Source of the DNA: Bacteriovoracaceae bacterium
GTDB taxonomy: Bacteria; Bdellovibrionota; Bacteriovoracia; Bacteriovoracales; Bacteriovoracaceae
Direction: 5' to 3'
DNA: 64,000 nucleotides
Assembly: GCA_947446575.1 (NCBI GenBank)
Contig: CANFHC010000003.1
Coordinates: forward strand, 62,001-126,000
A program made the position numbers and the translations under genes. This document shows, in pieces, positions 12,723 to 15,827 of the stretch (its first letter is position 1; each line of letters begins with the position of its first letter). Under the pieces are notes generated by a model that saw only the letters and a program-made list of their open reading frames with translations, did not search any database and was not told the origin of the DNA.

Positions 12723-13148
12723 ATGATTCATTTAGAAATTACCAAAAGCAGTACACCCTTGGCCCTAGGCCTTTACGAATATGATTTTGATCAAATTAGT
12801 ATTGGACGTTCAAAAAAAAATGATCTTATTTTTTTAGACAAAGAGCTTCCTTTACAATACTTGGTCATTAAAATTGTCCAAGGTCAGTTAATCGTTCAAA
12901 GCCTTACTCCCTCGCCTTATTTTTTTGTGAATGAAAAAAAGATTAGTGGTGTTTTAAAACTAAAACCTCAAGACGTTATTGCTTTTGGAGATAATCAAAT
13001 TCGCATCCTTCAATCTTCAGTAAGCAACATGAGTGCGGATTTTTCATCCGCTTATGAGACATTTAATAAAAAATCTCCCGAAATGAGATTTGCTTTAGAA
13101 TTTATTGAAGATATTCTCTTGAATCTTGAAAAGGATTCAAATGTTTAA
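12723..13148 (+). CDS. FHA-domain protein
   Basis: 141 residues. Residues ~24-100 fit a forkhead-associated domain: ISIGRSKKNDLIFLD holds the GR and the SxxNxI-like phosphothreonine-binding loop, and later FVNEKKISGVLKLKPQDVIAFG matches the N-G/L-x-GD end of the fold. FHA domains bind phosphothreonine proteins, implying a Ser/Thr kinase partner somewhere. None is coded here, although the UbiB-family kinase is nearby. The short helical C-terminus (MRFALEFIEDILLNLEK) has no recognised role. The next gene begins inside its last codons. Confidence 0.75.
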   Translation: MIHLEITKSSTPLALGLYEYDFDQISIGRSKKNDLIFLDKELPLQYLVIKIVQGQLIVQSLTPSPYFFVNEKKISGVLKLKPQDVIAFGDNQIRILQSSVSNMSADFSSAYETFNKKSPEMRFALEFIEDILLNLEKDSNV

Positions 13149-14043
13149 AAAAAATCATCCTAGTTATTTTTATACAAGCGATAGCATTCGTATTTTCTAT
13201 AATACAAATTTCGAGCGAATTGATTTAGATCCAAAACGTCCTGTCCTCGTTCTCATTTACGGACTTCTTTGTAGTAACAATCACTACAAATATCAAATTC
13301 CATTCTTTGAAGAATTAGGATATCAGATTCTCATCCACGATTATCGCTTCCACTATGCTTCTGAACAAGTTGGAGATATTGAAACTTGCAATTTTCCTAA
13401 TATCACAAAAGATCTGCACGAGCTTCTCGCCGATCTCAATATTAAAAAATCCATCTTTGTCGGTCATAGTATGGGAGTGAATATTTGCCTTGAGCATGCT
13501 CGTCGCTATCCTGAAGACATGATTGGTCAAATTCTTATTTCTGGAACAGTAATCCCTCCACAAGATATTATGTTCGATTCAAATATGGTAGACATCGTTG
13601 CTCCTCACTTAAAGGCCTTCACTGAAAAATACCCAACTCTCTTTAAGAATTTTTGGAAGCATTCTTATAAAAACCCTATTGCTCAATATATGATTTTTGA
13701 CGGTGGATTTAACAAGAAGCAAGTTGAGATGGAATTTATCCAACTTTATATGAAAAAAATAAGCGAGCTCCCAGAAGCACTCTTTTTTCACCTTTTAAAA
13801 CTTATGCATGATCACGATGTGATCAATCACCTCGAGTCTATTCAAACCCCCACTCTTGTCATTGGTGGAGATAAAGACAAAATTATTCCTAATTATTTAC
13901 AAAGAATTCTAACAACCAATATGCCCGCTAGTGAATTGTATATTGTAAAGGATGGCAGCCACGTACCTCAAGCCGATTTTCCTGAATTAATTAATTTGCG
14001 CTTGTTGCGTTTTGTAGAAAAAACCCACGCTCGAAATTCTTAA
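13141..14043 (+). CDS. Alpha/beta-hydrolase
   Basis: 300 residues with a standard alpha/beta-hydrolase core. An oxyanion strand (LVLIYGLLCSNNHY) is followed by nucleophile elbow GHSMGVN with the catalytic Ser, a catalytic Asp in GGDKDKIIP and the catalytic His in DGSHVPQAD. The family includes esterases, lipases and thioesterases, and the substrate cannot be told from sequence. I take the ATG at 13141 (preceded by AAAAGGA) rather than an upstream in-frame start at 13126. The gene overlaps the FHA gene by 8 bases and converges with the following minus-strand gene, overlapping it by 4 bases. Confidence 0.85.
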   Translation: MFKKNHPSYFYTSDSIRIFYNTNFERIDLDPKRPVLVLIYGLLCSNNHYKYQIPFFEELGYQILIHDYRFHYASEQVGDIETCNFPNITKDLHELLADLNIKKSIFVGHSMGVNICLEHARRYPEDMIGQILISGTVIPPQDIMFDSNMVDIVAPHLKAFTEKYPTLFKNFWKHSYKNPIAQYMIFDGGFNKKQVEMEFIQLYMKKISELPEALFFHLLKLMHDHDVINHLESIQTPTLVIGGDKDKIIPNYLQRILTTNMPASELYIVKDGSHVPQADFPELINLRLLRFVEKTHARNS

Positions 14044-15281
14044 AGTTTTAATTTTTTGTATTCAATCATCGCTTTGAAAATACGTTTCATTGCTGATTGA
14101 ACTTGCTGGCGTTTGTATTCTTGGTGAGACGCATCTCCCTGAGAATTTTCTTGAAAAGCCGTATTGTCTACAATTTGAATTTCATATGGATAAAAGAAAC
14201 GAATATCACGGGCAACGGGAGAAATATCCATGTTCAAAACTCTTCTCGCGAGTTCATTCTCATCAGGATCTAGCTTTTTAGCAATTCGTCTAAGTTCGTT
14301 GAATTCTTGCAAAAAAGGATTTTTATATTCGATCAATTGACGACAAGTAAATTGAATCGACTGATAACTCTTTGAGGTAAATTTATTTCTTTCGTTTGTT
14401 TCACCTTGCAGATTGCAATCTAGAATTTCTCTTTCCATCGCCGCGACAAAGCGATCCTCTGAAAGATTATTCCTTAGCGCCATCTTAATCACTCTTTGAT
14501 GAGCTTCTCTAAATCTTGGAAGATCAATCATCGTATTAATCGCACGGCTTGGTTTGTTGTTGTGCGGAATAACAATGTTTTTTTCCAAGAGAAACCGAAT
14601 CACTCTAAGCGTATCAAAGCGACTGTGAGTAACGAAACGAACTCCAACTCTATCAAATAATTCTTCTGCAACGTTTTCTGCTTTGTGCAAAAGTTTTATA
14701 ATAACACTTTCACGTGTCTTTTTAGATTTTGTCTCAAAATCAACCAACTGAACAATATCGTCTGAGCCCTTGATACCAATGTAAAGTTTGTCGTTATCGC
14801 CTCTAAAAATATATTTATAAAAACGATCAAAAATCTGAGTTTGAACAATATTGAAATAATTTGAACGAAGATCTTTATCCGCATGAATTATCGTGTGCAT
14901 CACTTTTAAAATTATCTCCGCCCACAATTTATCTTCTTTCTTATTAGGCTTATCGTCAGTCGCCATTAAAAATAGTTGGCTAATATCAGAAATCATCAAG
15001 AGAGAATTAGGAAGTTTTAAATCCAACCCTTCTGGGTTTCCTTCTTTTAAAAAATAGCGCTTGATAAATTGCAAAGCTTCTTGAAAATTTCCAAACAACT
15101 CTGCTTTAGAAACGTGATCGTTAGGATCAAACCCATAGCCTTTCAAAAAATGATTAACTTGATCGATCGATGACATCGGCCCCAAAAAATTCTTGGTATC
15201 GAGGGCCGATTTCCCGCCGACAACGACGTCGAGAATTTCCCAATCGAACATGTATTTTTGGAGGTAACTTGGTCTTTCCAT
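14040..15281 (-). CDS. Divergent protein with a RelA/SpoT-type (p)ppGpp synthetase fold
   Basis: 413 residues; resembles an uncharacterised delta-proteobacterial family (I recall TIGR04552/TIGR04562; not checked). The second half can be laid on a RelA/SpoT synthetase domain motif by motif: R190-x-S192-x3-K196 for the substrate-binding basic loop, DRVGVRFV with Asp210/Arg214 for the metal-binding D-x3-R strand, SYQSIQ (304-310) for the guanine-stacking YQSLH loop, and YEIQIVD with Glu367/Gln369 for E(V/I)QIRT. HQEYK (386-390) matches the closing H-x2-YK. An insertion of about 60 residues separates the middle motifs. His in YQSLH is Gln and Arg in QIRT is Val, so activity may differ. There is no HD hydrolase, TGS or ACT domain. 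The fold is inference by eye. Confidence 0.6.
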   Translation of the reverse strand: MERPSYLQKYMFDWEILDVVVGGKSALDTKNFLGPMSSIDQVNHFLKGYGFDPNDHVSKAELFGNFQEALQFIKRYFLKEGNPEGLDLKLPNSLLMISDISQLFLMATDDKPNKKEDKLWAEIILKVMHTIIHADKDLRSNYFNIVQTQIFDRFYKYIFRGDNDKLYIGIKGSDDIVQLVDFETKSKKTRESVIIKLLHKAENVAEELFDRVGVRFVTHSRFDTLRVIRFLLEKNIVIPHNNKPSRAINTMIDLPRFREAHQRVIKMALRNNLSEDRFVAAMEREILDCNLQGETNERNKFTSKSYQSIQFTCRQLIEYKNPFLQEFNELRRIAKKLDPDENELARRVLNMDISPVARDIRFFYPYEIQIVDNTAFQENSQGDASHQEYKRQQVQSAMKRIFKAMIEYKKLKL

Positions 15282-15303
15282 CTTCTATCTTTGATATATT
15301 CGT

Positions 15304-15332
15304 TTGTAAGCAGCGCCAAAATTGGCTAGAAT
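15304..15332 (+). promoter_or_regulatory. pgpA promoter with an inverted repeat in the spacer
   Basis: TTGTAA (15304-15309), a 17-base spacer and TAGAAT (15327-15332). The spacer holds the inverted repeat GCCAA-AA-TTGGC (15315-15326). Predicted transcription start is about 15339, three bases before the ATG at 15342, so pgpA may be translated from a leaderless mRNA. The divergent gene starts at 15281. Confidence 0.5.
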
Positions 15333-15341
15333 AATTATCTA

Positions 15342-15827
15342 ATGAATCAAGATAATAGACCATCTCTTAAAAGACTAGATATACTTTTCCTATCATTTCT
15401 AGGTTCCGGATACTTACCCTGGGCACCTGGAACCTGGGGAACTCTTGCGACACTTCCATTACTTTACGGATTGGGTCGATTTAACCCTCCCTATTTTCTC
15501 TTCATCCCCTTCCTTGTGATCATAACCATCATTTCTTCTTTTATCGCTGAAAGTGTTCAAAAAGAATTAAAACTCCACGACCCACAATGGATAGTGATTG
15601 ATGAATTTTTAGGAATGAGCGTCGCTTGGCTTTTTATCCAAACTCATAATTTATTACACCTTCTTATTCTTTTTATCCTCTTTAGAATTTTTGATATTAT
15701 TAAGATCTGGCCCGCGTCATACTTCGATAAAGAAGTTCATCACGGGGCTGGCACAATCCTCGATGATGTAGTCAGTGGAATCTATGCCGGACTGCTATAC
15801 TTGGTCATTGCTCGATATATTTTATAA
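15342..15827 (+). CDS. pgpA: Phosphatidylglycerophosphatase A (PgpA)
   Basis: 161 residues, the usual size. The motifs GSGYLPWAPGTWGTLATLP near the N-terminus, VIDEFLGM, and ILDDVVSGIYAGL at the C-terminus are characteristic of PgpA, which dephosphorylates phosphatidylglycerophosphate to phosphatidylglycerol at the inner membrane. About four hydrophobic segments are visible. FDKEVHHGAGTILDD carries the conserved D-x-H-GG-x-DD style active-site acids. There is no ribosome binding site upstream. recA lies about 210 bases downstream. Confidence 0.9.
   Translation: MNQDNRPSLKRLDILFLSFLGSGYLPWAPGTWGTLATLPLLYGLGRFNPPYFLFIPFLVIITIISSFIAESVQKELKLHDPQWIVIDEFLGMSVAWLFIQTHNLLHLLILFILFRIFDIIKIWPASYFDKEVHHGAGTILDDVVSGIYAGLLYLVIARYIL

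What the first reader, a model, noticed from the sequence alone, without database searches (positions are those of the whole stretch)
14040..15281. Cryptic RelA/SpoT-type synthetase fold in an uncharacterised protein
All main motifs of the (p)ppGpp synthetase domain appear in order: R-x-S-x3-K, D-x3-R, YQS, E-x-Q, H-x2-YK. There is a long insertion between the second and third. Two substitutions (His to Gln in YQSxH, Arg to Val in QIRT) argue that the reaction may differ from ppGpp synthesis, like toxic or tRNA-modifying relatives (toxSAS). It lacks hydrolase and regulatory domains, so it might be a small alarmone synthetase-like regulator or effector. I found this by eye only.
Basis: partly seen in the sequence, partly recalled or inferred. 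Interest (0 to 1): 0.66.

Follow-up and report, generated by a model that had tools for sequence, protein, structure and literature searches.

The report
RelA/SpoT-like enzyme of predatory bacteria
A gene of unknown function kept by nearly all members of a phylum of bacteria that includes well-known bacterial predators turns out to encode a diverged cousin of the enzymes that make bacterial starvation signals, with its energy-donor site intact but its acceptor site changed, so its product is an open and directly testable question.

Summary
The 413-aa ORF belongs to the uncharacterised NCBIfam families TIGR04562/TIGR04552. These are diverged RelA/SpoT synthetases. PF04607 matches 69 of 69 and 60 of 64 family members, some over Pfam's cut-off with full coverage. 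A family profile's top four PDB hits are alarmone synthetases. The AlphaFold2 model overlays Rel at Z 11.7. Eight residues of the ATP/Mg site are identical in 82 of 84 diverse members, so the enzyme is probably active. The adenine-stacking Arg is lost, and the G-loop and QIRT motifs are altered. It is no small synthetase: a ~157-aa N-terminal helical domain without a recognised fold and two insertions are added.

It is not mobile or toxin-like: in 213 of 240 phylum genomes, following family lines, absent from plasmids and viral contigs, beside an intact bifunctional Rel. In Bdellovibrio NC01 a published frameshift that removes the catalytic half reached >75% in one of six evolved lines, so it is dispensable in that co-culture.

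Most likely it is a phylum-core, synthetase-only pyrophosphokinase making an alarmone-type nucleotide. The toxSAS/tRNA reading is unsupported. Product and regulation are untested.

The parts
14040..15281 (-). Whole gene, 413 aa, TIGR04562/TIGR04552 family, RelA/SpoT-type synthetase
   Evidence: NCBIfam E 1.2e-133 and 4.6e-127; family-level PF04607 match
14811..15281 (-). N-terminal all-helical domain, residues 1-157; conserved Y49 G50 P91 H129 H133 D137 Q149; no recognised fold
   Evidence: conservation; model of this part alone mean pLDDT 75.6; Foldseek best E 1.1, best VIA Z 7.2
14043..14810 (-). Synthetase (SYNTH) domain with two insertions, residues 158-413
   Evidence: full-length AF2 model; VIA-align 2 Z up to 11.7 to Rel over model residues 139-386
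14682..14720 (-). Donor-phosphate motif K188-x-R190-x-S192-x3-K196-x3-K200 (motif syn1)
   Evidence: K188 84/84, S192 83/84, K196 84/84, K200 81/84 K; aligned to RelP YwaC by HMMER
14637..14654 (-). Mg/ATP motif D210-x2-G213-x-R215 (syn2)
   Evidence: D210, G213, R215 84/84
14388..14534 (-). First insertion, residues 250-298, two helices in the model
   Evidence: DSSP helices 254-271 and 275-288; about 50 residues longer than the own long Rel
14352..14387 (-). N299 to Q310, G-loop equivalent Y306-x-S308-x-Q310 (syn3)
   Evidence: N299 84/84; Y306 73, F 10, H 1; position 310 Q 54, H 17, K 13
14205..14324 (-). Second insertion, residues 320-359, largely absent from the Bdellovibrio-type members
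   Evidence: alignment A3; Y-to-E distance 61 here, 29 in the NC01 protein, 16 in the own long Rel
14112..14183 (-). Catalytic E367-x-Q369-x2-D372 (syn4) and H386-x2-Y389-K390 (syn5)
   Evidence: E367 and Q369 84/84, H386 83/84, Y389 83/84, K390 83/84; aligned to RelSeq and RelMtb by HMMER
15282..15341 (.). 60-bp gap to the divergent gene pgpA, 15342-15827 (+)
   Evidence: PF04608 E 1.7e-42; divergent pgpA lies within 1.5 kb in 34 of the 60 loci examined (counted from the printed rows)
13126..14043 (+). Convergent alpha/beta hydrolase, overlaps the 3' end by 4 bases
   Evidence: PF00561 E 3.4e-16

Best explanation
This is a diverged, synthetase-only RelA/SpoT homologue with an extra N-terminal helical domain, kept as a core gene of the Bdellovibrionota-type phylum beside the normal bifunctional Rel. 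It most likely binds ATP and Mg through the conserved donor site and transfers pyrophosphate to the 3'-hydroxyl of an acceptor. The acceptor is most likely a purine nucleotide (GDP/GTP first, others possible), giving an alarmone-type product; the N-terminal domain presumably gates this activity. Shown here: the homology, the predicted fold, conservation of the donor and catalytic residues, phylum-wide vertical inheritance, and (published plus mapped here) dispensability in one evolved NC01 line. Inferred: that it is active, what the acceptor is, what the N-terminal domain does, and a role in adjusting growth to starvation.
For: PF04607 in 69/69 members of A1 and 60/64 of A3. L065 (28.4 bits) and L101 (31.0 bits) pass the cut-off of 27 with profile coverage 4-111 of 113. 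The A3 profile's four best PDB sequences are RelP (YwaC), RelSeq, RelMtb and RelA, in the expected register. AF2 model pLDDT 84.7; VIA Z 11.7, rmsd 3.7, 132 aligned to B. subtilis Rel; the top 24 entries are all alarmone synthetases and the next, Pol lambda, reaches 7.1. K188 S192 K196 D210 R215 E367 Q369 H386 identical in 82/84; by my alignment seven of these match the SaRelP donor/Mg ligands K80 S84 K88 D107 R112 E174 H190 (PMC5794853, passages), and Q369 matches FaRel2 Q147 (PMC11782079, passages). G-x-R at syn2 in 84/84 resembles the AVR signature of guanosine enzymes rather than RYT of adenosine enzymes (PMC12226406, passages). Present in 213/240 genomes; gene tree fits family codes with the minimum of 13 changes. 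Own long Rel intact.
Against: No activity data. The arginine that stacks on the ATP adenine (SaRelP R78; invariant R44 in 29 long Rels) is P/S/A/E/Q at position 186. The G-loop His and QIRT Arg are changed, and Bdellovibrio-type members have F/Y-x-F-x-K, so the acceptor may not be GDP/GTP, or may differ between clades. The window protein alone misses Pfam's cut-off (16.9 against 27). Foldseek's best E is only 1.5e-3. The profile-profile comparison with long Rels aligned only the C-terminal 30 columns at 45% probability, and with the shallower A1 gave a misregistered start.
Confidence: 0.6

Rival explanations
1. A pyrophosphokinase of the same fold that acts on an acceptor other than G nucleotides: adenine nucleotides, a tRNA, or an as yet unknown metabolite.
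For: The donor site is conserved while the acceptor signatures are not: syn3 is mostly [A/S/F]-x-[Q/H/K] and syn4 is mostly [I/V/L]-[V/M/T/L]-D rather than IR; Bdellovibrio-type members have F/Y-x-F-x-K. In the f9 genome the gene sits between rluB and rimO.
Against: Neither GxN (syn3) nor RYT (syn2) of adenosine enzymes is present; syn2 is guanosine-like G-x-R. Four of 84 keep Y-x-S-x-H. FaRel2 is a weaker fold match (Z 4.5) than Rel/RelP/RelQ.
Confidence: 0.25
2. A toxSAS: toxin of a toxin-antitoxin or anti-phage system.
Against: Present in 213 of 240 phylum genomes, nearly always one copy, with vertical descent. No plasmid hit, no viral-contig hit, no PADLOC hit. Monocistronic between pgpA and a hydrolase; neighbours elsewhere differ by lineage (PlsC-type gene, a 400/650-aa pair, rluB/rimO) and none is a conserved small partner.
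Confidence: 0.05
3. A catalytically dead regulator that only binds nucleotides and controls Rel or the ribosome.
For: Loss of the adenine-stacking Arg; a frameshift rose in an evolved line.
Against: Catalytic Glu and Asp, both Lys, Arg and Gln are 84/84 invariant across highly diverged members, which is not expected of a dead enzyme.
Confidence: 0.1

Closest known systems
TIGR04552 / TIGR04562 (NCBIfam, uncharacterised)
   Same: The window protein is a clear member of both (445.8 and 424.2 bits, cut-offs 140 and 125).
   Different: The NCBI name assigns no function; here the C-terminal part is assigned to the RelA/SpoT synthetase superfamily.
Small alarmone synthetases RelP and RelQ (SAS2/SAS1)
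   Same: Same predicted fold (5ded Z 11.1, 6fgk Z 10.8), no hydrolase domain, donor and Mg residues conserved.
   Different: 413 aa against about 200; N-terminal domain, two insertions, R78 lost, altered G-loop and syn4; phylum-core and vertical instead of sporadic.
Long RSH (Rel/RelA/SpoT), catalytic half
   Same: Best fold match (8acu Z 11.7); spacing D-x4-R and E-to-H (19 residues) as in the genome's own Rel.
   Different: No HD hydrolase, TGS or ACT domain; the genome also has a separate intact Rel.
toxSAS (FaRel2, CapRel, FaRel)
   Same: Synthetase fold without hydrolase; the base-stacking Tyr and the K-S-K, D, R, E, Q residues have counterparts.
   Different: Weaker fold match (FaRel2 Z 4.5), no conserved antitoxin neighbour seen, core chromosomal gene, the donor Arg (R64 of FaRel2) absent.

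Membership tests
RelA/SpoT synthetase (SYNTH) superfamily, PF04607 | Significant profile match of the family to PF04607 | tested here: met
   69/69 of A1 (best 3.4e-9) and 60/64 of A3 (best 4.2e-9) at E <= 1. L064, L065, L096 and L101 pass the cut-off, two with full coverage; three genomes' copies pass. The window protein alone is below it (16.9 against 27), and Bdellovibrio-type copies mostly escape (several f6 genomes show only the long Rel).
RelA/SpoT synthetase (SYNTH) superfamily, PF04607 | Synthetase fold | tested here: met
   Predicted model: VIA Z 11.7, top 24 entries all Rel/SAS. Predicted, not solved.
RelA/SpoT synthetase (SYNTH) superfamily, PF04607 | Catalytic Asp and Glu plus donor-phosphate Lys/Ser/Lys | tested here: met
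   82/84 identical at eight positions.
RelA/SpoT synthetase (SYNTH) superfamily, PF04607 | Adenine-stacking Arg of the donor site (R78 SaRelP, R64 FaRel2); one ligand among several, not by itself defining | tested here: not met
   Position 186 is P 35, S 27, A 17, E 4, Q 1 of 84. It lowers the claim of a standard ATP site, not of homology.
RelA/SpoT synthetase (SYNTH) superfamily, PF04607 | ATP-dependent 3'-pyrophosphoryl transfer | not testable with these tools
   Needs an assay.
Small alarmone synthetase (SAS) subgroup | SYNTH-only protein without additional domains | tested here: not met
   Conserved ~157-aa N-terminal domain and two insertions. PMC3153485 describes SASs as in general small, single-domain and sporadic, with an actRel exception (passages).
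Long RSH | HD hydrolase domain N-terminal to SYNTH, TGS/ACT after it | tested here: not met
   No such Pfam hit; the protein ends about 23 residues after the H-x2-YK motif.
toxSAS | Paired or fused antitoxin | tested here: not met
   Neighbours differ between lineages and are pgpA, hydrolase, PlsC-type, Fe-S proteins, rluB/rimO. A fused antitoxin role of the N-terminal domain is not excluded.
toxSAS | Toxicity; tRNA CCA or adenine-nucleotide pyrophosphorylation | not testable with these tools
   Needs expression and assay.
TIGR04552/TIGR04562 | Score over the curated cut-off | tested here: met

The most novel reading that the evidence does not exclude
A whole phylum carries a second, dedicated alarmone-type enzyme whose acceptor pocket has been rebuilt while the donor half stayed fixed, so that it makes a signal nucleotide not made by Rel, possibly tied to membrane-lipid supply (divergent from pgpA in one class, coupled to a PlsC-type acyltransferase gene in the Bdellovibrio clade), and whose loss can be tolerated or even favoured under prey limitation.
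Probability: 0.15. Interest if true: 0.82.

Novelty: new variant of a known kind. Interest (0 to 1): 0.56.

Why it matters
Nucleotide signalling in the Bdellovibrionota is usually discussed for c-di-GMP and the ordinary stringent response (recalled). Here is a core gene of the phylum, named only by a model number, that can be assigned to a chemistry and tested at once. The acceptor question (guanine, adenine, tRNA or something else) is sharp, and the family offers natural variants of the acceptor motifs on one conserved donor site. It also gives a candidate meaning to a frameshift selected or carried along in an evolution experiment, where the gene had no assigned function.

Tried and rejected
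Direct PDB sequence search with the window protein: nothing useful. The A1 profile against the PDB also gave nothing relevant; only the more diverse A3 profile worked. hhalign of family against long Rels: weak, and misregistered with A1. N-terminal domain modelled alone (mean pLDDT 75.6): no match that stands out (Foldseek best E 1.1; VIA best RbcX Z 7.2, within the range that the tool calls a common arrangement); this does not show a new fold. Viral structure library: no match under E 0.001. PADLOC and PHROGs: nothing relevant. Homologue in the 'phages' collection: one, but its record is a bacterial chromosome piece. Divergent homologue in 20 genomes without a family hit: 0 of 20 found (that call held no positive control). 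Gene neighbourhood as functional evidence: no partner is shared by all lineages. Distribution outside the phylum could not be tested beyond 14 control genomes (0 hits), E. coli DNA (0), plasmids, phages and viral contigs. Toxin idea dropped for the reasons under the rivals.

Rows left out: A1 used 68 of 80 genome-collection loci plus the window (12 truncated or near-identical left out). The 84 representatives were taken from 181 ORFs (length 340-500, under 75% identity). A3 holds 63 of the 84 plus L213. A2 used 29 of 31 long Rels. The neighbourhood table used 60 of 182 loci, and that used 19 loci.

Full report
What was checked. The named motifs are present in order, with one slip (D-x4-R instead of D-x3-R; the own long Rel has the same spacing). 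NCBIfam already knows the family by number only: TIGR04562 (1.2e-133) and TIGR04552 (4.6e-127). The single protein hits PF04607 RelA_SpoT at E 0.008, 16.9 bits, under the cut-off of 27.

Is the resemblance real? Alone, this protein would not settle it: a profile of long Rels and two synthetase-only proteins gives it 2.3 bits. The family does settle it. PF04607 hits 69 of 69 members of A1 (the next Pfam family hits 11) and 60 of 64 of A3 (the next hits 7). L064, L065, L096 and L101 exceed the cut-off, L065 and L101 over profile positions 4-111 of 113. In 59 phylum genomes the family copies often match PF04607 in two pieces, profile 4-59 and 83-112, in the right order with the insertion between. 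A profile of A3 against 177,635 PDB sequences gave RelP (E 0.018), RelSeq (0.018), RelMtb (0.3) and RelA (0.7) as its first four, aligned motif on motif; each is weak alone, but the joint ranking and register are not chance. The negative control: median 7.25 bits for 64 members, against -2.5 (maximum 6.8) for 1008 other ORFs and -1.3 (maximum 8.9) for 1920 shuffles; 36 of 64 lie above every other ORF and 24 of 64 above every shuffle.

Fold. The AF2 model (69 sequences) has mean pLDDT 84.7 and pTM 0.69. Foldseek's first 42 PDB matches are alarmone synthetases, best E 1.5e-3 with probability 1.00, none under 0.001. VIA-align 2 gives B. subtilis Rel Z 11.7, rmsd 3.7, 132 residues; the first 24 entries are Rel, RelA, SpoT or small synthetases (Z 7.1 or more; lowest 7.5). 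The next are DNA polymerase lambda (7.1 and below), which has the wider nucleotidyltransferase fold (recalled), and further down the toxSAS FaRel2 (4.5).

Active site. In 84 diverse members K188, K196, D210, G213, R215, N249, N299, E367 and Q369 are invariant, S192 83/84 and H386 83/84; the set K-S-K-D-R-E-Q-H is identical in 82. By my alignment these correspond to SaRelP K80, S84, K88, D107, R112, E174 and H190, which hold AMPCPP and Mg (PMC5794853, passages), plus FaRel2 Q147 (PMC11782079, passages). Missing is the adenine-stacking Arg (SaRelP R78): position 186 is P, S, A, E or Q. On the acceptor side Y306 is Y in 73, F in 10 and H in 1; position 308 is A, S, F or Y; position 310 is Q 54, H 17, K 13; four members have canonical Y-x-S-x-H. 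Syn2 is G-x-R in 84 of 84, nearer to AVR of guanosine enzymes than to RYT of adenosine enzymes; syn3 is neither GxN nor mostly SxH; syn4 is neither IR nor YH (signatures from PMC12226406, passages, where swapping them did not change specificity, so they predict weakly). I infer an active pyrophosphokinase with an uncertain acceptor.

Architecture. Residues 1-157 form a helical domain with its own invariant residues (Y49, G50, P91, H133, Q149; 84/84). Modelled alone it matches nothing clearly. There are two insertions in the synthetase domain; Bdellovibrio-type members largely lack the second.

Distribution and descent. The family is in 213 of 240 phylum genomes, 175 of 188 good ones, nearly always once; TIGR04562 is in 46 of 57 relatives. 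Twenty genomes without a hit stayed empty with the A3 profile (no positive control in that call); many of these are small genomes (1.2-2.0 Mb). A tree of 64 rows needs 13 changes of family code, the minimum possible, against 31.9 when shuffled (15 rows had no code). It is not on plasmids or viral contigs; the only 'phage' homologue lies in a bacterial contig. The genome's own bifunctional Rel is intact, with the HD motif and the later domains visible in its sequence (read by eye); 58 of 59 phylum genomes have a match over the PF04607 cut-off, usually a long frame of about 710-780 aa. The window's kin carry names such as Bacteriovorax sp. (L031, 91% identity), so the host is taken to be of that group.

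Neighbourhood. In the window the gene stands alone: 60 bases from the divergent pgpA and overlapping a convergent alpha/beta hydrolase by 4 bases. Divergent pgpA lies within 1.5 kb in 34 of 60 loci examined (counted from its rows). In the clade with Bdellovibrio a same-strand acyltransferase gene follows in 13 of 19 loci (the L146 copy is PF01553), overlapping by 4 bases in L146. In 6 of the 14 loci printed (L157, L158, L165, L167, L170, L171) two overlapping genes of about 400 and 650 aa follow; the L158 pair was scanned (no family; Fe-S domains). In L160 it lies between rluB and rimO. No partner is universal. The link to two phospholipid genes is suggestive only.

An experiment already in print. 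PMC9888234 (Table 1 and section 8 read, other passages searched) lists a one-base deletion in a 'TIGR04552 family protein' (DOE51_RS08710) at more than 75% in evolved line B of Bdellovibrio sp. NC01. All ten reference bases of that table which I checked agree with genome G170, which I therefore take to be NC01. The deletion hits codon 247 of 366, window residue 255 by alignment, before the G-loop Tyr and the catalytic Glu, so the catalytic half is lost. The paper reports better starvation survival in all six lines (passages; in one or more lines not statistically significant), but only line B carries this mutation at high frequency, together with three others (one in the Na/Pi cotransporter, mutated in four lines), so it may be a passenger. 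It does show that the catalytic half can be lost in that co-culture.

Place among known things. It is a member of the RelA/SpoT synthetase superfamily by profile, predicted fold and catalytic residues. It is not a SAS in the strict sense, not a long RSH, and not shown to be a toxSAS. PMC3153485 names 12 SAS subgroups, one 'bdRel' for beta/delta-proteobacteria (passages); I could not test whether that is this family. No paper that I found in the library searched assigns a function to TIGR04552/TIGR04562 or to DOE51_RS08710 (listings, with passages read where cited); the library holds only open-licence papers.

Noticed in passing
L213 (MW495066.1, 108540-139622): The record 'Microcystis phage MaAM05, complete genome' carries smc, scpA/B, secD/secF, fliM, glyS and a TIGR04552-type gene here: it looks like a bacterial chromosome fragment deposited as a phage.
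   Followed up: partly
L216:912-1913, L217:843-1880, L219:916-1920: Some genomes of the phylum carry further synthetase-only proteins of 333-345 aa (PF04607 E 8.5e-19, 8.6e-18 and 1.4e-13) besides the long Rel and the TIGR04552 protein; distribution scattered.
   Followed up: partly
L158:7208-10512 and the matching place in L157, L165, L167, L170, L171: In several families the gene heads an apparent operon with a ~400-aa protein that has an oxidoreductase-like start (by eye) and a ~650-aa protein with 4Fe-4S, 2Fe-2S and BFD-like domains.
   Followed up: partly
G112:C1:1122402-1122735: In one f6 genome the long Rel match is split over two overlapping frames of 357 and 448 aa, suggesting a broken or misassembled rel gene in a genome that keeps TIGR04552.
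   Followed up: no
G089: A 95% complete genome with a TIGR04552 copy shows no PF04607 match over the cut-off, so its long Rel may be absent or unassembled.
   Followed up: no
window 1-64000: No tRNA or tmRNA gene in the whole 64-kb window.
   Followed up: no
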